From positions 2,406,001 through 2,470,000 of the forward strand of contig NZ_CAHJXL010000001.1 in the NCBI RefSeq assembly GCF_903645315.1: a DNA stretch of 64,000 nt, read 5' to 3'. A program made the translations under genes and the position numbers. The notes below the pieces were generated by a model. It did no database searches. It was not told where the DNA came from and was given only the letters and a program-made list of their open reading frames with translations. Shown here piece by piece: positions 54,718-64,000 of the stretch (positions are counted from its first letter, which is position 1; each line of letters starts with the position of its first letter). The DNA is from Victivallis sp. Marseille-Q1083. Its GTDB lineage: Bacteria > Verrucomicrobiota > Lentisphaeria > Victivallales > Victivallaceae.

Positions 54718-56364
54718 ATGTTTAAGTTCAGGTTGATCAGTTCTCTCGAAAAAGTGTTTTGCGACGAGGCGCTGCAGGCGGAGGAGTTGTGCTGCGGCAC
54801 CGCGCTGCAGGGGGAAATTTACAGTTTTCAGGTGGCCTACTGGACCGACAGTTGGTGTTTGAAGGTGTTGCCGGTGGTCGAATCGCCGCTGGCGGAGGCG
54901 GTCACGGTCCGGGAGGTGAAATCGGTTCCGAGCGAACTGCCGGCCAACGATCCGGAGATTCCGGACGCCGTGTTGCGCCGGACGCCGGGCCTGTATCCGG
55001 ACCTGCTCGATGAAATTGCCGATGGAGTGAAAACGCTGCCGGAGCAGTGGCGGACGTTGTGGGTTTCGGTTGCCGTGCCGGAGAATTGCGCCGGCGGCAA
55101 ATATCCGATCCGGCTGAAACTGGTTCCCGCAGAACCGATGCCCGATCTGCCGGAAGTGCTGGGAGAGGGGAATTTTACGCTGGAAGTAGTGCCGGTGGCG
55201 CTGCCGGAGCAGACGCTGATCCATACCGAATGGTTCCATGCCGATTGTCTTTATACCTATTATCAGGTGCCCTGCTGGAGTGAAAGGCACTGGGAACTGC
55301 TGAAAGCCTATATCCAGTCGGCGGCGGATCACGGCATCAATATGCTGTTGACGCCGCTGTGGACGCAGCCGCTGGATACCGCGGTCGGCGGGGAGCGGCC
55401 GACGGTGCAGTTGCTGAAGATCAGCAAGAAGGGAGACCGCTACCATTTCGACTTCTCGCTGCTGGAGCGCTGGATCGATCTCTGCGAGTCGTGCGGAATC
55501 CGGTACTTCGAAATGTCACACTTGTATACGCAGTGGGGAGCCACCTGCACGCCGAAAATTGTCGTGGAAGTTGATGGCGAGGAACAGAAACTGTTCGGCT
55601 GGCAGGTTTCCGCCCAATCGGTTGAATACCGTCAATTCCTGCAGCAGTTGCTGCCGGAATTGACCGCTTTCCTGCGCGGCAAACAGTTGGAGGGGCGTTG
55701 CTATTTCCATGTTTCCGACGAGCCGAGCGAGGAACATCTGGAGAGCTATCAGCGGTCGGCGGAATTCGTCGCGTCGCTGCTGGATGGCGACTGGCCGATG
55801 ATCGATGCGCTGTCGAGTTTCGAATTCTATGCCAAGGGACTGGTCAAGCTGCCGATTCCGTCGAACGATCACATCGAAGCGTTCGTCGAGCACCAGGTTC
55901 AGCCGTTGTGGACCTATTATTGCGTTGGTCAGCGGGCGGCGGTGCCGAACCGTTTCTATTCGTTCTCCTCGGCCCGCAACCGGATCATGGGAATTTTGAT
56001 GTACCGCTATCAGATCAAAGGGTTCCTGCAGTGGGGATTCAATTTCTGGTATACGCAGTACTCGCTGAAGCAGGATATCGATCCGTTCCGGGAAACCGAT
56101 GCCGGCCGGGCGTTCTGCGGCGGCGATTCCTATCTGGTTTATCCGGGGAAAAACGGTCCGCTCGATTCGATCCGCTACGAAGTGTTCCGGGATGGTTTGC
56201 AGGATATGCGGGCGCTGGAGTTGCTGGAGAAGAAAATCGGCCGGCCGGCGGTGCTGGAGCTGCTGGAAGGCGATCTCGGCTATCAATTGACGATGAAGCG
56301 CTATCCGCGCAGCGCCAGTTGGCTGCTGGAGGTGCGCAACCGCATCAACCGGGCGTTGGCGTAA
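54718..56364 (+). CDS. DUF4091-like putative glycoside hydrolase
   Basis: This 548-residue protein has an N-terminal beta-rich part (about 1-165), a barrel-like middle (HTEWFHADCLYTYYQVPCWS, then HGINMLLTPLWTQPLD and YFHVSDEPSEEHL, with possible catalytic acids in SDEPSEE) and a C-terminal DUF4091-like segment (KGFLQWGFNFWYTQYS, then PLDSIRYEVFRDGLQDMRALELL). It has no signal peptide. Families of this type are common in gut Lentisphaerota and Bacteroidota and are thought to act on glycans. It follows ftsZ by 41 bases with GTAAGGAG before its ATG, and is followed after 12 bases by the secretion-locus 94-aa gene. Confidence 0.75.
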   Translation: MFKFRLISSLEKVFCDEALQAEELCCGTALQGEIYSFQVAYWTDSWCLKVLPVVESPLAEAVTVREVKSVPSELPANDPEIPDAVLRRTPGLYPDLLDEIADGVKTLPEQWRTLWVSVAVPENCAGGKYPIRLKLVPAEPMPDLPEVLGEGNFTLEVVPVALPEQTLIHTEWFHADCLYTYYQVPCWSERHWELLKAYIQSAADHGINMLLTPLWTQPLDTAVGGERPTVQLLKISKKGDRYHFDFSLLERWIDLCESCGIRYFEMSHLYTQWGATCTPKIVVEVDGEEQKLFGWQVSAQSVEYRQFLQQLLPELTAFLRGKQLEGRCYFHVSDEPSEEHLESYQRSAEFVASLLDGDWPMIDALSSFEFYAKGLVKLPIPSNDHIEAFVEHQVQPLWTYYCVGQRAAVPNRFYSFSSARNRIMGILMYRYQIKGFLQWGFNFWYTQYSLKQDIDPFRETDAGRAFCGGDSYLVYPGKNGPLDSIRYEVFRDGLQDMRALELLEKKIGRPAVLELLEGDLGYQLTMKRYPRSASWLLEVRNRINRALA

Positions 56365-56376
56365 AGGAGATTGCTC

Positions 56377-56661
56377 ATGGCTGCCAGACGGGTATTCGTC
56401 GATGGCCTGGAAAAGGTCAGCATGATGGATGGCATGATCCATCTGGATTTTTTCAACTACGTGTCCGGCGCCGACCGGACGCAGCCGTTGAACAAGGAAG
56501 TGACCGAGGAGATGATTCTGTCGACGGCCGGTTTTCGGCGCATTCACGCCGCCGTCGACAAATTGTTTCATCAGTTGCAGCAGGCTGGATTGTTGCCGGG
56601 AGAAAATGAGCCGGCGGCGGAGAAAGGGCAGGAGCCCGCTTCGCCGAATTTTCGGGATTGA
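56377..56661 (+). CDS. 94-residue protein of the type I secretion locus
   Basis: I do not recognise this protein with confidence. It shows DGMIHLDFFNYV, then EVTEEMILSTAGFRRIHAAVDKLFHQLQQAGLL and a charged Pro/Glu tail. The order (short strands, then a segment that reads like a beta strand ending before a helix of leucines) recalls DUF3467-type proteins, but the match is weak. GGAG lies 7 bases before ATG 56377. It is 6 bases upstream of the ABC exporter, so it is probably translated with it and may be a chaperone or adaptor for cargo. Confidence 0.65.
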   Translation: MAARRVFVDGLEKVSMMDGMIHLDFFNYVSGADRTQPLNKEVTEEMILSTAGFRRIHAAVDKLFHQLQQAGLLPGENEPAAEKGQEPASPNFRD

Positions 56662-56667
56662 TCCGGC

Positions 56668-59244
56668 ATGGAAATGACTGACAGCCGTTTGACCGCCGAG
56701 GCGTGCATCCGAGAGATCGTCCGGGTGCTGCCGTCCGGAGTCAATCCGGAGGCGCTGTTCGCCGAATTGCCGTTGGCGGAGCAGCCGCCGCACGAGTGGC
56801 TGTGCACGGTGCTGGAGCGTTTGGATTTCCAGGCGCAGTATCTGGAAGCGGAAGCGCCGGGTGAGTTGTATTTGCAGATCGGCATGCCGGTGATGTTGCA
56901 GTTGGCCAACGGCAACTGGGTGATTTTTCTCGGCTTGCGCTCGCCGTTGCGGCAGGGGGACAGCGAACAGGTGGTGCTGTTCGACCCGTTGACCCAGGCG
57001 GAAAACAAGATGCTCTTTGTCCCGAAAGGGCAGTTCGAGCGCAATTGGCACGGCCGGGCGATCCTGGTCCGGTCCCGCCGCAACGCTTCGTATGCGGCCG
57101 ATGGCCGGCTGACGGCGTTTTATGCGTTTTGCGCGATCGCCCGGCAGTGCGGCGTCGAAGTGGATGTCGCCCGGTTGCGGCATGAGAGCGCCATCGAGAC
57201 GGCGGAGCCGGACTGGCGGGAGTTGCAGGCGATCGCCGGGCGTTACGGCTTGAAGAGCCGGGCGGTGAAATTCGACTGGACGAGGCTGCGCAATTTGCAG
57301 GAAGCTTTTCCCGCTTTGGTGGAAAAGAAGAACGGCCAGTTCGCGGTGCTGTGCGGTTTCCGCGCGGCGGCGGACGGCGAAGTGCAGGCGGCGGTCTGGG
57401 ATCCGGCGCCGCCGCCGGGGGAGACGCCGGGCGTTCATTACTGGAAACAAGCTCAATACGAAGAAGTTTTTGCCGAACGCCAGTTGCTGTTGAAGCGGAC
57501 CTATTCGCTGCTGGATGAGAAGCAGCCGTTCGGGCTCTCCTGGTTTGTGCCGGAGTTCTGGAAGCAGCGCCGGTTGTTCCTGGAGGTGGTGCTGGCGATG
57601 CTGGCGATCAGCGCGATCGGTCTGGTGACGCCGCTGTTTTTCCAGATCGTCGTCGACAAAGTGCTGGTACACGAGAGTTACCGGACGTTGAACGTGCTCG
57701 GCGTCGGCATTGTCGTCGTGCTGCTGTTCAACGCGGTGCTGGAAGGGTTGCGGGATTATTTGCTGCTCTTCTGCACCAATAAGATCGATATCAGGACTGC
57801 GGCGCGGACTTTTCTGCATATGCTGAATTTGCCGGTCGGCTTTTTCGAACAGATGCCGGCCGGGGTGTTGATCAAACACATGCAGCAGACCGATAAAATC
57901 CGCAATTTTCTTTCCGGAAATTTGTTTTTCACGATGATCGAACTGATTTCGCTGGCGGTGTTCATTCCCTTTTTGTTCATTTACAGTTGGCAGTTGACGC
58001 TGGTGGTGCTGGCGTTTTCGCTGATGATGGCGTTGATCATCGCTTGTCTGATCCGGCCGTTCCAGCGGCGTTTGCAGGAGCTCTATCTGGCCGAAGGACA
58101 GCGGCAGAGCATGCTGGTGGAGTCGATCAACGGCATCCGCACGGTGAAATCGCTGGCGCTGGAGCCGGCGCAGATCCGCAAGTGGAACGATACGGCGGCT
58201 TACGCCATCACCCGTTATTTCAACGTCGGCAAGATCTCGATGACCGCCCGGGTGACCAGCCAACTGCTGGAAAAACTGATGGTCGTGGCGATCATCTGGA
58301 TCGGCGCGCTGGCGGTTTTCGACAAGGAAATCACGGTCGGCGCCTTGATTGCCTTTCAGATGCTGGCCGGCCGGGTGACCGGCCCGCTGGTGCGCCTGGT
58401 CGGGCTGGTGCACGAATACCAGCAGACGGCGTTATCGGTGAAAATGCTCGGACAAGTGATGAATGCGCCGCCGGAACAGGTCGGCGGCCGGATCCGGCAG
58501 CCGTTGAAAGGCGAAATTTCCTTCGAAAACGTCACCTTCCAGTATACGCCGGACAGTGTGCCGGCGATCAGGAATTTTTCATTGCGCATCCGGCCCGGCG
58601 AAGTGGTCGGTCTGGTCGGCCGCAGCGGTTCCGGCAAGACGACGCTGACCAAATTGCTGCAGGGGCTCTATCCGCTGCAGCAGGGGTTGATCAAATTCGA
58701 CGGCATTGATTTGCGGGAGATCGACCGGGCTCATTTACGGGCCAACATCGGCGTGGTGCTGCAGGACAACTTCATTTTCAGCGGCACGATCCGCGACAAC
58801 ATCGCGCTGACCAAGAAAGATGCGTCGATGGAGGAGATCATCTACGTGTCGCGCCTGGCCGGTGCCGAGGAATTCATCCAGAAACTGGGCAGAGGCTATG
58901 ATTCGGTGCTGGAAGAAAATGGCGCCAACCTGTCCGGCGGCCAGCGGCAGCGGCTGGCGATCGCCCGCGCTTTGCTGCCCAATCCGCGCATTTTGATTTT
59001 CGACGAGGCGACCAGCGCGCTGGACCCGGAGAGCGAAGAGTTGATCCGGGCGAACCTGCGGATGATCTGCCGGGAGCGGACGGTGATCATCGTTTCGCAC
59101 CGGCTGTCGATGGTGATGGGGGCGGACAATATCGTCATTCTCGACGGCGGCGAACTGCGCGATGCCGGAACGCACCGGCAATTGCTGCAGCGGGAAGGCA
59201 TCTATCATGACTTTTGGGTGCAGCAGCAGGGAGGGATGGCTTGA
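56668..59244 (+). CDS. HlyB-like type I secretion ABC exporter with C39-like domains
   Basis: This 858-residue protein has two N-terminal peptidase-C39-like segments (about 1-130 and 140-265), then six transmembrane helices (about 295-570) and an ABC ATPase (Walker A GRSGSGKTT, signature LSGGQRQR, Walker B ILIFDEAT, switch VSHRLS). In C39 proteases a catalytic Cys follows Gln near the start and a His follows Gly before a hydrophobic strand. Here the matching positions read FYAFCAIARQCGV and KNGQFAVLCG, with His replaced by Gln, so the domain should not cleave. Such C39-like domains in HlyB bind uncleaved cargo. The HlyD-like gene follows after 2 bases. Confidence 0.88.
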   Translation: MEMTDSRLTAEACIREIVRVLPSGVNPEALFAELPLAEQPPHEWLCTVLERLDFQAQYLEAEAPGELYLQIGMPVMLQLANGNWVIFLGLRSPLRQGDSEQVVLFDPLTQAENKMLFVPKGQFERNWHGRAILVRSRRNASYAADGRLTAFYAFCAIARQCGVEVDVARLRHESAIETAEPDWRELQAIAGRYGLKSRAVKFDWTRLRNLQEAFPALVEKKNGQFAVLCGFRAAADGEVQAAVWDPAPPPGETPGVHYWKQAQYEEVFAERQLLLKRTYSLLDEKQPFGLSWFVPEFWKQRRLFLEVVLAMLAISAIGLVTPLFFQIVVDKVLVHESYRTLNVLGVGIVVVLLFNAVLEGLRDYLLLFCTNKIDIRTAARTFLHMLNLPVGFFEQMPAGVLIKHMQQTDKIRNFLSGNLFFTMIELISLAVFIPFLFIYSWQLTLVVLAFSLMMALIIACLIRPFQRRLQELYLAEGQRQSMLVESINGIRTVKSLALEPAQIRKWNDTAAYAITRYFNVGKISMTARVTSQLLEKLMVVAIIWIGALAVFDKEITVGALIAFQMLAGRVTGPLVRLVGLVHEYQQTALSVKMLGQVMNAPPEQVGGRIRQPLKGEISFENVTFQYTPDSVPAIRNFSLRIRPGEVVGLVGRSGSGKTTLTKLLQGLYPLQQGLIKFDGIDLREIDRAHLRANIGVVLQDNFIFSGTIRDNIALTKKDASMEEIIYVSRLAGAEEFIQKLGRGYDSVLEENGANLSGGQRQRLAIARALLPNPRILIFDEATSALDPESEELIRANLRMICRERTVIIVSHRLSMVMGADNIVILDGGELRDAGTHRQLLQREGIYHDFWVQQQGGMA

Positions 59245-59246
59245 GC

Positions 59247-60575
59247 ATGACGAAGAAACCGAAAATTCCGGCGGCGGCGCTGGAATTTCAATCCGACGCA
59301 CTGGAGCTGGAGCAGCGGCCGGCGCCGTGGTATTCCCGGCTGACCTTGTATGTCATTTTGCTGCTGTTCGTCCTGGCGGTCGTCTGGGCCAGCGTCTTCA
59401 AAGTGGACAAGATCGTCATGGCCGAAGGCAAATTGACGACCTTGCGGCCGAATATCGTCATGAAACCGCTGGAACGCACGGTGATCAGGGAGATCAATGT
59501 GGTCGCCGGCCAGTTCGTTCATGAGAACGATGTGCTGATCACCTTCGATCCGACCTTCAACCAGGCGGAGGAAGAGCGGCTGCAGGAGCAGTTGAAGAGT
59601 CTGACCATGGAGACCGAACGGCTCAAGGCGGAGGCCGCCGGCCGGGAGTTTCAGGTGGACGGGGCCGCCGCCGATTGGGATTACAAGCAGCAGCGGCTGA
59701 TTTTCGATGAACGTAATTTGTATTACCGGGCCCGGCTGGATTATTTCGAACAGAATCTTCAGCGCATCGACGCCGGATTGCATACCCGCCGGCAGAGTCT
59801 GAGTAAGCAGCGGGAACGGCTGGAGAAACTGCAGGAGATCGAAGACATGTTGACGACGCTGCACGAGCAGGGCAGTGTATCGCTGAAGCAGCTGCTGGAA
59901 ACCCAGTTGTCGCGGTTGCAGATGGAGGGGGAGGTCGACCGGCTGGAAAATCAACTGCAGGAAGCCGAACATGAACGGTCGTCGGTCGGCTCGGAACGGG
60001 ATTCTTTTATCAAGGATTACCAGCGTCAGACGGTTGAATCGCTGGTCGAGGTCGAGCGCAACCGGCAGGCGGCGGAAAAACAGTTGGAAAAAGCCCGGCG
60101 GCTGAGCTCGCTGGTGGTTTTGCGGGCGCCTTGCGATGCGATCGTCCATGAGATCGCCGCCTTTTCGGAGGGGTCGGCGGTCCGGGAGGCGGAATCGTTG
60201 ATTACGTTGGTGCCGGTGAGCGACGTTGAAGTCGAAGCGAACATCGACCCGCGGGATATCGGCCTGGTCAAATGCGGTGATGAAGCCAGGATCAAGCTGG
60301 ACCCGTTTCCGTTTCAGCGGTTCGGCACGCTGACCGGTCGGGTCAGGCTGATTTCCGAGGATACCTTTCAGGAGCAGTTGGGCAACGGCGCGACCCGCAA
60401 TTATTACCGGGCCCGGCTGACGGTGGAGGGCCGGTTGTCCCAGGTGCCGGAGAATTTCCGGCTGCAGCCGGGGATGCGGCTGACCGCCGAGATCAAGGTC
60501 GGTGAACGGCGGCTCATCGAATATCTGATTCATCCGCTGATCAAGGCGCTGGATGAATCGGTGCGGGAACCGTAA
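59247..60575 (+). CDS. HlyD-family membrane fusion protein
   Basis: This 442-residue protein has a short cytoplasmic start, one transmembrane helix (about 33-55, LTLYVILLLFVLAVVWASVF), a first lipoyl half (GKLTTLRPNIVMKPLERTVI, then GQFVHENDVLITFD), a long coiled-coil hairpin (about 110-290), a second lipoyl half (LRAPCDAIVHEIAAFSEG) and a beta-barrel plus C-terminal domain. It bridges the inner-membrane exporter to a TolC-like duct. No tolC gene is in the window, so an outer-membrane partner must be encoded elsewhere. GGGAGGGA precedes ATG 59247. Confidence 0.92.
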   Translation: MTKKPKIPAAALEFQSDALELEQRPAPWYSRLTLYVILLLFVLAVVWASVFKVDKIVMAEGKLTTLRPNIVMKPLERTVIREINVVAGQFVHENDVLITFDPTFNQAEEERLQEQLKSLTMETERLKAEAAGREFQVDGAAADWDYKQQRLIFDERNLYYRARLDYFEQNLQRIDAGLHTRRQSLSKQRERLEKLQEIEDMLTTLHEQGSVSLKQLLETQLSRLQMEGEVDRLENQLQEAEHERSSVGSERDSFIKDYQRQTVESLVEVERNRQAAEKQLEKARRLSSLVVLRAPCDAIVHEIAAFSEGSAVREAESLITLVPVSDVEVEANIDPRDIGLVKCGDEARIKLDPFPFQRFGTLTGRVRLISEDTFQEQLGNGATRNYYRARLTVEGRLSQVPENFRLQPGMRLTAEIKVGERRLIEYLIHPLIKALDESVREP

Positions 60576-60619
60576 GCGGAAAATTTGGGTAAAAAAACAT
60601 TTTTTGGCGAATTTTGCTA

Positions 60620-60648
60620 TTGCATTTTTGTTTTGAGGTGCTTATAAT
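60620..60648 (+). promoter_or_regulatory. Promoter of the secreted-protease gene
   Basis: TTGCAT and a consensus TATAAT (60643-60648) are separated by exactly 17 bases, 68 bases before the ATG. The cargo can therefore be expressed more strongly than the exporter. Confidence 0.7.
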
Positions 60649-60715
60649 TATACGGATGGATTTTTGACGATTCCAATAGAGCCGTCGTACTGCGGCTGAA
60701 TTAGGAGATGGAACA

Positions 60716-63058
60716 ATGGCTAGAGATGAAGGAATGGAGCAGGCGAACTGGACCGATGCCGGCGCGGACGGCGTGGTGTTGGACATGTTCCCGCAGGAGA
60801 CTTCGGCCGGCAGGGTGGTCTTGTCGGGGTTGGGGGAAGATCAGTTGGAATGGGTGATCATGGCGGACGGCCGGGTTGCCGACGCGATGGCGGAAAGACA
60901 ATCGAGCCGGCGGGCGATGGCGGCGCTGCGAAGTGCGTCGGCTGCGGCGATTTCCGAGCTTTCCTTCAGCGGAGTCAATCAGGTGACGGCATTGTTGCGC
61001 AGTTATTCGGCCGGCCAGGCGACGGCGGCAATGACGTTGAATGCCGCTGCGGCCGGCAATTCGGCGGCGCTGTCCAGCCTGACGGCGCCGGGCGTCAAGT
61101 CGAACGCCGTGGTAATGCCGGATGATTACGATAGCGAAGGCAGAGATGACAACTGGTGGACGCGGGCGACGGATCTTTACGTGTCCGAACTCGGCCAGGA
61201 GCATACGATTCATGTCGGCGGCGATATCGACTGGGTGAAATTCACGCCGGATACCATCGGCCGTTATTCGATTCAGACCACCGGTACGCTGTCGGATATG
61301 CAATTCACGGTTTATTCCCTGACCGGGGCTGGTGAGTTGAACGAGATTGCGACGGTGAAGGGCGATAAATTGGGCGGTCCGGAATATTCCGAATTTTTAC
61401 GGGCCGGCATGACTTATTATATCAAAGTTTCGGCGCTCGATCCGGATAAGACGGTAAAAAATTACCAGATTCGGGTATCGGCCAGCGATGGCGCCTATGA
61501 TCAATATGAAGTAGGCGGCGGCGACGGCAAGGCGAAAGGCAACGACAACTTGTGGACGCAGGCGACGGCGTTGTCGGTCGGCGAAGTGCAGCTGCACAGC
61601 ATTCATCTGAACGGCGACATCGACTGGGTGAAAATTGCCGCGAACGGTCTGCAGACGATCAGTCTGGATGCCTCGGATGACATGAAATTGACTTTTTATG
61701 AGCTGACGAAATCCGGTTTGGTGGAAATCAGCCGATTGGCCGGGAATCATGGCGGCATTGCTTATGAATTCAGTTCGGCGAAGACCTATTACGTATCGGC
61801 GGAGAAGAATGGCTCCGGTACGGTGCAGGCTTATGAATTGAGCCTGGTCAACGGCAATCCGGGCTACATCCGGGTCGACCAGTATGAAAACGACAACACC
61901 AAAGAACAGGCGACGACGCTGACGGTGAAGGAAAGCCAGCAGCACACCCTGCACGATTCCGGCGATGTCGACTGGATGACGTTCTCGCTGACCGATACCG
62001 GATACGGTGAAATCACGCTTTCGGCCACCGAACGGCTCGCGGCGAAGCTCTATCAGGTCGTTGACGGCAACCTGATGGAAGTGAGCAGCCAGACCGGGAC
62101 GAACATCACCATCACGACGGAAGCGGCCCCGGGCACGACATATTACTTGCAGACCGAAACGGTTGACGGAACGCCGGTCAACAGTTACGACGTCAATTTG
62201 TCGGTTACACCGCCGAGCCAGAATTACGTCGTGTTGTTCAGCGGCGGATGTGATATGTACAATAATCGTATTGATTATTATACGACCGTTCGTGAGATGT
62301 ATAACACCATGCTTAATGTTTATAATGTTCCGGCGGAGAACATTTTCGTTGTTTATGCCGATGGTACCGATCCGGGGGGTGATTGTTTTGATCCCTTTAC
62401 TGAGAGGGTGTTTAACTCCGATATGACATATGCGACGAGCAAGGGGTCGCAAGTATTGGCCGCCAGCCGAAATAATTTGAAAAATGTTTTCAGTCAAATT
62501 AGTAGTGTAATTACTGAAAATGACAACTTTCTCTTTTATGCTTATGATCATGGCGGAGGGGAAGAAGATCCTTCCATAAAAGGAGAAGAAGTTCTTTGTG
62601 GTTGGTATTATCCCGATTTGTCGACGGGTACCTATGGTGAGATGAATGATATTACCGGTGTTGAATTTGCCCAATGGTCAGAGTCGATAAACGCGAAGGC
62701 TGCTACGTTGACTTATATGTTTAGTGAATGTTTTTCTGGGGGAATGTTGCAGGCGTTGCCGGAGCAGGACAATTTGTTTGGCATGTCTGCCGCCAATCAT
62801 TTTGAATCTTCCTGGAGTAGTTTCGGCCCGAACGGGGAATTCGCCAGTTGCCACAGTTTTGCCAGTGAAATTGTCCGGGCATTTCTTAATGGTTATACCA
62901 GTACTTATGATGTATACAACTATGTCATAAATAACGGCGATTTTGCTTGTCGCAACGTTTACGAGCCAAATGGCACCTGCGTGGAAGGTCATCCCGATGG
63001 AGGGTTCGAGCATCCATGGATGCTAGGGAGCAATCATCAGATATTGGCGCAAGTGTAA
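60716..63058 (+). CDS. Secreted PPC-repeat protein with clan-CD cysteine protease domain
   Basis: This 780-residue protein has no signal peptide. An Ala-rich N-terminal region (1-130) may be a propeptide or export leader. Three PPC-like beta-sandwiches follow, each with a GDxDW core (D170, D301, D417). The C-terminal 270 residues match clan-CD peptidases: NYVVLFSGGCDMYNN opening strand, YNVPAENIFVVYADG, catalytic His in FYAYDHGGG (H612) and catalytic Cys in MFSECFSGG (C672), most like legumain (C13) or gingipain-type folds. No RTX glycine repeats occur. It follows the HlyB/HlyD-type genes, has its own promoter and ends at a strong terminator, so it is the probable exporter cargo. Confidence 0.82.
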   Translation: MARDEGMEQANWTDAGADGVVLDMFPQETSAGRVVLSGLGEDQLEWVIMADGRVADAMAERQSSRRAMAALRSASAAAISELSFSGVNQVTALLRSYSAGQATAAMTLNAAAAGNSAALSSLTAPGVKSNAVVMPDDYDSEGRDDNWWTRATDLYVSELGQEHTIHVGGDIDWVKFTPDTIGRYSIQTTGTLSDMQFTVYSLTGAGELNEIATVKGDKLGGPEYSEFLRAGMTYYIKVSALDPDKTVKNYQIRVSASDGAYDQYEVGGGDGKAKGNDNLWTQATALSVGEVQLHSIHLNGDIDWVKIAANGLQTISLDASDDMKLTFYELTKSGLVEISRLAGNHGGIAYEFSSAKTYYVSAEKNGSGTVQAYELSLVNGNPGYIRVDQYENDNTKEQATTLTVKESQQHTLHDSGDVDWMTFSLTDTGYGEITLSATERLAAKLYQVVDGNLMEVSSQTGTNITITTEAAPGTTYYLQTETVDGTPVNSYDVNLSVTPPSQNYVVLFSGGCDMYNNRIDYYTTVREMYNTMLNVYNVPAENIFVVYADGTDPGGDCFDPFTERVFNSDMTYATSKGSQVLAASRNNLKNVFSQISSVITENDNFLFYAYDHGGGEEDPSIKGEEVLCGWYYPDLSTGTYGEMNDITGVEFAQWSESINAKAATLTYMFSECFSGGMLQALPEQDNLFGMSAANHFESSWSSFGPNGEFASCHSFASEIVRAFLNGYTSTYDVYNYVINNGDFACRNVYEPNGTCVEGHPDGGFEHPWMLGSNHQILAQV

Positions 63059-63072
63059 AAGCATTCCGTATG

Positions 63073-63106
63073 AAGGGTCCGGAGCACAATCCGGACCCTT
63101 TTTTAT
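63073..63106 (+). terminator. Intrinsic terminator after the protease gene
   Basis: An 11-bp stem (AAGGGTCCGGA with TCCGGACCCTT) with a 6-base loop is followed by a T-run. Confidence 0.9.
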
Positions 63107-63208
63107 TGATTAGATAGATAAAAAGCGATTTATATCATTTCGCTTTCAAATGCAGATATTGCTTAAAAGTGATGCTATCTTATCGGTAACCGAAATAGGG
63201 GATTACTG

Positions 63209-63385
63209 ATGATACAGCCGCATTTAACCGTAGAAGAAATATCCTTCCTCTGCCCGGATACAGGAGACCGGTGTTCGCTGATCATGCCATATTCAAATAC
63301 GGACTGCATGCAGATTTTTCTGGATGAATTTGCCAGGCAACGAGCCGGAAAACCAACCTTGATCATCTTGATTGGTAATTGGAAG
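63209..63385 (+). pseudogene. IS630-family transposase remnant
   Basis: The frame reads PDTGDRCSLIMPYSNTDCM, then QIFLDEFARQRAGKPTLIILIGNWK, which resembles the stretch of IS630 DDE transposases before the second aspartate. Everything before and after is missing, and the DGAGWH position has decayed to IGNWK. It is a relic of about 58 codons. It abuts the end of the convergent TIGR04076-like gene. Confidence 0.5.
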
Positions 63386-63721
63386 TTACTCATCTTTTGG
63401 TCTAGGACCATTTGGCAGAGGTTTTCCATTTTTATCTCGATTAATAGGAGTTGCTTTAAGATGAAATTGTATACATCCATCAGCGCATGGTATATTCATT
63501 TCATATTTTTCTTTTTCACCTCTATATGTAAAATCACCACCACATCGGATAACTTCACACCATGTGTATACTTTTATCATTGTTTTAGGGCACATTCCAG
63601 CAGGACATTCATATGAAAAGACAAATTTATCTCCTTTTTCTAATCCAAGCCGACAGTGTCCTGCTTTTCCCGCTATTGCTGTTAATTCAAATTGCCAATC
63701 TTCAGTACACCATTTTTGCAT
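63386..63721 (-). CDS. TIGR04076-like small cysteine-rich protein
   Basis: This 111-residue protein resembles TIGR04076: AGHCRLGLEKGDKFVFSYECPAGMCPKTMIKVY, then IRCGG and a late NIPCADGCIQFHLKA. The repeated cysteines could bind metal. The function of the family is not known. GGAGG lies 8 bases before ATG 63721; an in-frame ATG 15 bases upstream lacks such a site. Base composition is AT-rich compared with the rest of the window, and it sits next to a transposase remnant, both of which suggest transfer. Confidence 0.75.
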   Translation of the reverse strand: MQKWCTEDWQFELTAIAGKAGHCRLGLEKGDKFVFSYECPAGMCPKTMIKVYTWCEVIRCGGDFTYRGEKEKYEMNIPCADGCIQFHLKATPINRDKNGKPLPNGPRPKDE

Positions 63722-63853
63722 ATTGATAACCTCCAACGTTAATACGAATAATCTGCTGAATAAATTTTGATTTTATATGTTTGTATTATAATACGCATAT
63801 ATGAATTTTCCTATCATTATTCCTGCGTTTGTACAAAGTAGCAAAGCCATTCA

Positions 63854-63902
63854 CACTCGTCAACGGTCGAGATGAACGGGCTTCGTCCGCCGTTGACAAG
63901 TG
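63854..63902. repeat. 13-bp inverted repeat at the window edge
   Basis: CACTCGTCAACGG and CCGTTGACAAGTG pair at 12 of 13 positions around a 23-base loop. The bases from here to 64000 hold no gene and show further short stems (for example around GCGAAAGCACTCGC), so an RNA element or mobile-element end cut by the edge is possible. Confidence 0.35.
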
Positions 63903-64000
63903 CGTCTACCCCTGCTTATATGGTAGCCAGGAGGGCGAAAGCACTCGCGTAGTATGGTTTTTCTTCTATCTACCCGTATCGTTTTATATCGCCATAGGAA

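What the first reader, a model, noticed from the sequence alone, without database searches (positions are those of the whole stretch)
56377..63058. Type I secretion locus dedicated to a clan-CD (legumain/caspase-like) protease
Seen: a HlyB-like exporter, a HlyD-like adaptor and a 780-residue protein with three GDxDW beta-sandwiches and a His612/Cys672 clan-CD catalytic pair, with no Sec signal and no RTX repeats. Known: type I systems usually export RTX proteins or C39-cleaved peptides, while secreted clan-CD proteases (gingipains, clostripain) normally use Sec with T9SS or other routes. Inference: the pair is a self-contained system that exports a calcium-repeat-free cysteine protease, perhaps activated outside the cell.
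Basis: partly seen in the sequence, partly recalled or inferred. Interest (0 to 1): 0.8.

Follow-up and report, generated by a model that had tools for sequence, protein, structure and literature searches.

The report
Protein exporter beside caspase-like protease gene
A bacterium of the Lentisphaerae group carries a one-step protein export pump next to a gene for a large caspase/legumain-like protease that lacks the usual export labels; the pump is a common type in its relatives, but the protease looks like an unusual, perhaps recently assembled passenger.

Summary
Window 56377-63058 holds a small conserved gene, a HlyB-type ABC exporter, a HlyD adaptor, and a 780-residue protein with three GDxDW repeats and a C-terminal clan-CD peptidase domain (Pfam C13, 33.8 bits over a cut-off of 22.8; His612/Cys672 line up with metacaspase-4). 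It has no Sec signal and no RTX repeats. The exporter is not dedicated to the protease: 34 of 60 relatives searched have it at 52% identity or more, and 0 of 20 other exporter loci carry this peptidase in the fetched flanks. Repeat-type proteins next to the exporter elsewhere are AIDA/PPC (3 loci, one genus) or Ser/Thr-rich (1). The peptidase domain has GC3 0.45, against 0.62-0.79 for the rest of its gene, and close relatives occur in 2 of 197 genomes of the class, this one included. Best reading: a PPC-like passenger of a general type I system that gained a clan-CD protease domain. The other class member is fused to RTX and AIDA repeats and also lacks a Sec signal, whereas 11 of 13 more distant C13-type proteins look Sec-exported. 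The 'unprecedented' premise fails: MARTX C80 is a clan-CD peptidase in type I cargo. Unexpectedly, the exporter has two C39-like domains in tandem. Export itself is unproven.

The parts
56377..56661 (+). small conserved gene (about 95 aa, family 'P0004'), function unknown, 6 bases before the exporter
   Evidence: tblastn with this protein: L039, L044, L045, L047, L048, L049 at E 5e-14 to 2e-20, all 5' of the exporter (in L045 one other frame lies between); L051 at E 1.6e-4 and L052 (found only with the relatives' proteins, E 7e-15) lie 3' of HlyD; no Pfam or NCBIfam hit
56668..59244 (+). HlyB-type ABC exporter, 858 aa
   Evidence: TIGR01846 681.9 bits, cut-off 725.55; HlyB is best solved match
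56680..57078 (+). first C39-like domain of the exporter (residues 5-137)
   Evidence: Pfam C39 16.7 bits over profile 16-131 of 133, below cut-off 22; homologous to second domain, hhalign 97.5%, E 7.5e-12, 19 exporters
57094..57522 (+). second C39-like domain of the exporter (residues 143-285)
   Evidence: Pfam C39 best stretch 153-229; HlyB model starts at residue 152
59247..60575 (+). HlyD-type adaptor, 442 aa
   Evidence: TIGR01843 311.8 bits, cut-off 208.65
60716..63058 (+). putative cargo, 780 aa: N-terminal region, three PPC-like repeats, clan-CD peptidase
60716..61105 (+). cargo N-terminal region (residues 1-130), partly Ala-rich, no known domain, GC3 0.785
61106..62215 (+). three PPC-like GDxDW repeats (residues 131-500)
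   Evidence: alignment A6; profile comparison with PPC domains of exporter-adjacent proteins, E 1.5e-5; no Pfam PPC hit
62216..63055 (+). clan-CD (C13-type) peptidase domain (residues 501-780); GC3 0.45
   Evidence: Pfam C13 36.9 bits for this part; GC3
62549..62551 (+). codon of presumed catalytic His612
62729..62731 (+). codon of presumed catalytic Cys672
63072..63101 (+). terminator-like hairpin after the cargo (12 pairs); none listed on this strand between adaptor and cargo
   Evidence: 7 hairpins found against 8.4 expected in shuffles, so weak evidence

Best explanation
A general type I secretion system of this bacterial family (ABC exporter with two C39-like domains, plus a HlyD adaptor, using a TolC-type channel encoded elsewhere) exports large, Sec-less surface or secreted proteins, many built of AIDA, PPC or RTX modules. 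In this genome the passenger gene next to it is a PPC-like-repeat protein onto which a clan-CD cysteine protease domain has been fused, probably by horizontal gain. Proposed path: the C39-like domains bind the unfolded cargo; the ABC exporter threads it to the outside in one step; it folds there; the PPC-like repeats dock it to a surface or substrate; and the His612/Cys672 dyad cleaves peptide bonds outside the cell. Shown: the domains, their order, the exporter family, the lack of a Sec-like start, and the composition break. Inferred: that this exporter carries this cargo, horizontal gain, the place of folding and activation, and the docking role. Cleavage specificity is not predicted.
For: Same strand, 140 bases after HlyD, no terminator-like site listed between them. 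No Sec-like stretch in the cargo, while 11 of 13 C13-type proteins of the phylum with a readable start have one (7 of the 13 are over the Pfam cut-off). In three relatives of one genus the gene next to the exporter encodes a PPC protein, two of the three with AIDA repeats too and the third cut by the contig end (L048, L049, L044), and these PPC domains resemble the cargo's repeats. The only other close peptidase relative in the class (G054) lacks a Sec-like stretch, is followed in the same frame by RTX and AIDA repeats, and its genome has the orthologous exporter at 56%. Composition break at the PPC-like/peptidase border and 2 of 197 genomes in the class, this one included, fit horizontal gain. 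Clan CD.
Against: The peptidase domain runs to within about 12 residues of the C-terminus (EHPW is shared with the Phycisphaerales protein), leaving little room for a separate C-terminal type I signal. Link of this cargo to the exporter is seen in one genome only. G054's peptidase gene is on another contig than its exporter. RTX repeats, the usual partner of C39-like exporters (PMC8277102, passages), are absent. The four exporter-adjacent repeat proteins elsewhere lie 5' of the exporter, not 3' of HlyD as here. The N-terminal 130 residues match nothing over a curated cut-off.
Confidence: 0.6

Rival explanations
1. The neighbourhood is a coincidence: the protease is a cytoplasmic caspase/legumain-like enzyme (stress or defence), not a type I passenger.
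For: No separate C-terminal signal beyond the catalytic domain; no RTX; the 20 other exporter loci lack this neighbour; 2 of 13 C13-type proteins of the phylum with a readable start also lack a Sec-like stretch.
Against: PPC proteins sit beside the exporter in three relatives and their PPC domains resemble the cargo's repeats; the RTX/AIDA-fused relative in G054.
Confidence: 0.22
2. A dedicated, self-contained secretion locus for this protease.
For: Adjacent, same strand, no terminator-like site listed between.
Against: Exporter widespread without the protease (0 of 20 loci); no channel gene in the locus; the same genome has a 1440-aa AIDA protein without a Sec-like start that could be another passenger, though it also has a second exporter copy.
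Confidence: 0.08
3. The fusion removed the original secretion signal and the gene is a recent, non-exported or decaying chimera.
For: Sharp composition break, an IS630 remnant just downstream, peptidase domain at the very C-terminus.
Against: Open over 780 codons; dyad and neighbouring motifs (DHG, LCGW) intact and shared with both relatives; an ILA-type ending like that of other candidate passengers (motif chosen after seeing the ends).
Confidence: 0.1

Closest known systems
Type I secretion systems with C39-like-domain exporters (HlyB/HlyD/TolC)
   Same: ABC exporter with C39-like domain, HlyD adaptor, large Sec-less neighbour
   Different: Two C39-like domains in tandem instead of one; cargo without RTX; an extra small conserved gene
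MARTX toxins with a C80 cysteine protease domain (PMC12445089, PMC8277102; passages seen)
   Same: A clan-CD peptidase inside a type I passenger
   Different: Here the domain is C13/metacaspase-like, C-terminal, in a 780-aa protein without RTX; activation by inositol phosphate was not examined
Legumain family C13 / metacaspase C14B
   Same: Sequence similarity with His and Cys aligned
   Different: The residue two before the catalytic Cys is Ser, Thr, Ser in the three aligned proteins, where legumain has Glu (recalled); joined to PPC-like repeats
Phycisphaerales UBA2266 PPC-like + C13-like protein (DDXG01000305.1, L091)
   Same: Same domain pair in the same order, 31% identity over residues 412-768
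   Different: 1339-aa frame with GEVED, Big_9 and cadherin-like domains; no exporter or adaptor match among the frames picked in its 13.7-kb contig

Membership tests
Type I secretion system | ABC exporter of the HlyB/PCAT class | tested here: met
   TIGR01846 681.9 bits (below its 725.55 cut-off), Pfam domains over cut-off, HlyB best solved match
Type I secretion system | HlyD-type adaptor next to the exporter | tested here: met
   TIGR01843 over cut-off; HlyD match within 214 bases of the exporter match in 19 of 20 other loci; in the twentieth (L047) the contig ends just after the exporter
Type I secretion system | TolC-type outer-membrane channel | tested here: inconclusive
   15 OEP domain matches in the genome, none in this locus; partner unknown
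Type I secretion system | Cargo without Sec signal | tested here: met
   No hydrophobic stretch near the N-terminus by hydropathy; no signal predictor was available
Type I secretion system | Uncleaved C-terminal secretion signal in the cargo | tested here: inconclusive
   Peptidase homology reaches about 12 residues from the end; ILA-type ending like 5 of 8 candidate passengers with a complete C-terminus, motif drawn post hoc
RTX proteins | GGxGxDxUx repeats | tested here: not met
   None in cargo; no PF00353 match in the genome at E 0.001
Clan CD peptidases | His-Gly and Cys dyad in the caspase-type order | tested here: met
   Pfam C13; His and Cys align with metacaspase-4; conserved in the 3 aligned proteins
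Clan CD peptidases | Caspase-like alpha/beta/alpha fold | not testable with these tools
   Structure prediction switched off
Peptidase family C13 (legumain) | Pfam C13 score over curated cut-off | tested here: met
   33.8 bits against 22.8. Against: the G054 relative has no C13 hit at E 1 nor at E 0.001, and L091 none at E 0.05; the three-sequence profile matches metacaspase-4 (E 1.8e-6) better than plant asparaginyl ligases (E 0.03)
Peptidase family C13 (legumain) | Asn/Asp-specific S1 pocket (Glu at Cys minus 2; recalled) | tested here: not met
   Ser, Thr, Ser at that place in the three aligned proteins
MARTX / C80 | RTX-flanked C80 domain | tested here: not met
   No RTX; Pfam lists C13 and no C80 family for the protein
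PPC domain proteins | PF04151 match | tested here: not met
   No Pfam hit; profile similarity only

The most novel reading that the evidence does not exclude
A distinct lineage of type I exporters, with two C39-like cargo-binding domains and a small partner protein, has become a general export route that does not need calcium repeats, and swaps enzymatic domains onto native PPC/AIDA passengers; here it delivers a caspase/legumain-like protease that becomes active only outside the cell.
Probability: 0.28. Interest if true: 0.68.

Novelty: new variant of a known kind. Interest (0 to 1): 0.45.

Why it matters
If right, it extends clan-CD proteases as type I passengers beyond toxins to a C13/metacaspase-like enzyme, gives a calcium-repeat-free passenger for a C39-like exporter (a review seen in passages says the two go together, PMC8277102), and defines an exporter class with doubled C39-like domains and a small conserved partner that can be tested directly.

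Tried and rejected
'Dedicated system': rejected, because the exporter is common without the protease. 'No precedent for clan CD in type I': rejected (MARTX C80). PPC by Pfam: not met. Whole-cargo relatives in genome contigs: none; peptidase relatives in viral contigs, plasmids and phages: none; whole cargo in plasmids: none. Weak repeat-region hits of the whole cargo in G024 and G020: the frame picked for G024 lay on the other strand, and neither was pursued. Signal-peptide count: one search picked a wrong-strand frame for L079, read correctly (it has a Sec-like stretch, so the count is 11 of 13, not 10 of 12); L086 (second hit of the same genome) was dropped because its frame shows no clear start; loci with cut starts were not counted, and repeats of one gene were counted once; six of the 13 are under the Pfam C13 cut-off or came only from the three-sequence profile. 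The frame picker missed some genes behind antisense frames (HlyD seen in 15 of 18 there); one search repeated the checks in six frames. The promoter scan listed no plus-strand promoter in the adaptor-cargo gap. Papers: 'peptidase C13' + 'type I secretion' gave 0; 'type I secretion' + 'clan CD' + 'cysteine protease' gave 1; Lentisphaerae or Victivallis + 'type I secretion' gave 4 and 3, seen as listings and, for PMC4452313, passages; PMC3501461 on prokaryotic caspase homologues, passages, no use of the words hemolysin, PPC or C13; 'C39-like domain' + tandem + HlyB gave 2, listing only. Other searches seen as listings only. These searches cover only an open-licence library, so absence is weak.

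Full report
What is there. The window lies in a 4.82 Mb genome in 5 contigs. Reading rightwards: a small gene (56377-56661), a HlyB-type exporter (56668-59244), a HlyD adaptor (59247-60575), a gap of 140 bases, then a 780-codon gene (60716-63058) and a terminator-like hairpin. No hairpin of that kind is listed on this strand between adaptor and cargo, but the scan found no more hairpins than shuffles do, so this is weak. Upstream are FtsZ- and GH123-type genes and GroEL- and FtsA-like genes (these two names recalled from the sequence). Downstream, beyond the window, are 23S and 5S rRNA and a tRNA. Rfam finds nothing in 56000-64000.

The cargo. Pfam gives Peptidase_C13 over its cut-off (36.9 bits for the domain alone). 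So clan CD is well supported by sequence; C13 rather than C14 is less sure, the more so as Pfam C13 does not hit the G054 protein at E 1 or the Phycisphaerales one at E 0.05. Asn517 (in the region of legumain's third catalytic residue, recalled), D611-H612-G613, L627-C628-G629-W630 and C672 are invariant in the three. The acidic residue that legumain has two places before the Cys (recalled) is Ser/Thr here, so Asn/Asp specificity should not be assumed. The three GDxDW repeats do not score in Pfam PPC, but their profile resembles PPC domains (hhalign 79.7%, E 1.5e-5, three sequences a side).

The exporter is a common machine in this family. Of 61 genomes searched (this one included), 58 have some match at E 1e-60, which includes other ABC exporters; 35 of 61 (34 of 60 relatives) have a match at 52% identity or more, some partial, and this genome has a second copy at 58%. 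I fetched 20 other exporter loci (L038-L056 and L106). All 20 hold the exporter; 19 of 20 have a HlyD match within 214 bases, and in the other the contig ends. A six-frame profile search found the peptidase in 0 of these 20, while it found it in the control locus L057; flanks are up to about 9 kb and shorter at contig ends. Repeat-type proteins directly next to the exporter or its small gene are PPC with AIDA in L048 and L049, PPC in L044 (cut at the contig end) (one genus), and a Ser/Thr-rich one without Pfam hit in L051. An FG-GAP/Ig-like protein in L045 lies about 2 kb upstream with other frames between; AIDA (L040) and RTX (L055) proteins lie about 3 kb away. The remaining loci show no obvious passenger.

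Origin of the protease half. GC at third codon positions is 0.785 in the N-terminal part, 0.62-0.77 in the three repeats and 0.45 in the peptidase. In 60-codon steps the first two thirds stay between 0.57 and 0.80, and the steps from residue 501 on lie between 0.30 and 0.53. The frames of 300 codons or more picked in the window, antisense ones included, lie at 0.58-0.79 apart from one at 0.44 that looks like an insertion-sequence transposase (name recalled). Close peptidase relatives occur in 2 of 197 genomes of the class and, at E 1e-6, in 6 of 387 of the phylum sample, the same two included. An IS630 transposase remnant lies just downstream (E 0.0017). Horizontal gain is the simplest reading but was not tested by a tree.

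Route of export. The cargo and the G054 relative have no hydrophobic N-terminal stretch. Of 13 C13-type proteins of the phylum with a readable start, 11 have a Sec-like stretch (10 by 14-residue hydropathy of 1.8 or more; one, L079, read by eye) and 2 do not; this is not a signal predictor, and 7 of the 13 are over the Pfam cut-off. G054's peptidase is followed in the same frame by RTX and AIDA repeats, and that genome has the exporter on another contig. Against this: the peptidase domain occupies the C-terminus, where the type I signal should be. The ending ILAQV fits a pattern ([ILMVFY]L[AV] plus up to two residues) seen in 8 of 207 frames: the window's cargo, four other candidate passengers, and three others. 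The AIDA protein of this genome ends NGYLA; the candidates in L045, L051 and L055 do not fit. The pattern was drawn after looking at the ends, so it is a lead.

Two further features. The exporter's first ~137 residues are a second C39-like domain: Pfam C39 over nearly the whole profile but under the cut-off, and the two domains match each other with E 7.5e-12 over 19 aligned exporters, this one included, all 850-931 residues long. Neither seems to keep the catalytic Cys, judged from the recalled motif; but a Cys at residue 13 of the first domain is kept in 18 of 19, so loss of activity is not proven. The small upstream gene has relatives in 8 of the 20 other loci: 5' of the exporter in six, 3' of HlyD in two (L051, L052).

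Comparison. A review seen in passages links C39-like exporters with large RTX cargo (PMC8277102); this genome shows no RTX match. Clan-CD peptidases in type I cargo are known from MARTX C80 (PMC12445089; PMC4357240, passages). So the kind is known; the domain family, lack of RTX and doubled C39-like domain make it a variant.

Noticed in passing
56680-57522: The exporter carries two C39-like domains in tandem, also in the 18 orthologues aligned with it (850-931 aa).
   Followed up: partly
56377-56661: Small gene with a shared SPNF C-terminal motif (SPNW in one of 6 aligned), tied to the exporter in 8 of 20 other loci; no known family.
   Followed up: partly
63209-63400 and 63389-63736: IS630 transposase remnant (plus strand) and a TIGR04076-type small protein gene (minus strand; 29.6 bits, under its cut-off of 33) between the cargo and the rRNA genes.
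   Followed up: partly
L102:2146-6468: 1440-aa AIDA-repeat protein of the same genome without a Sec-like start, ending NGYLA; a possible second passenger.
   Followed up: partly
L091:8949-12968: Planctomycete protein with the same PPC-like + peptidase order inside a larger multidomain frame.
   Followed up: partly
L075: C13-hit protein of a relative whose N-terminus looks like a zinc-binding anti-sigma factor (recalled motif).
   Followed up: no
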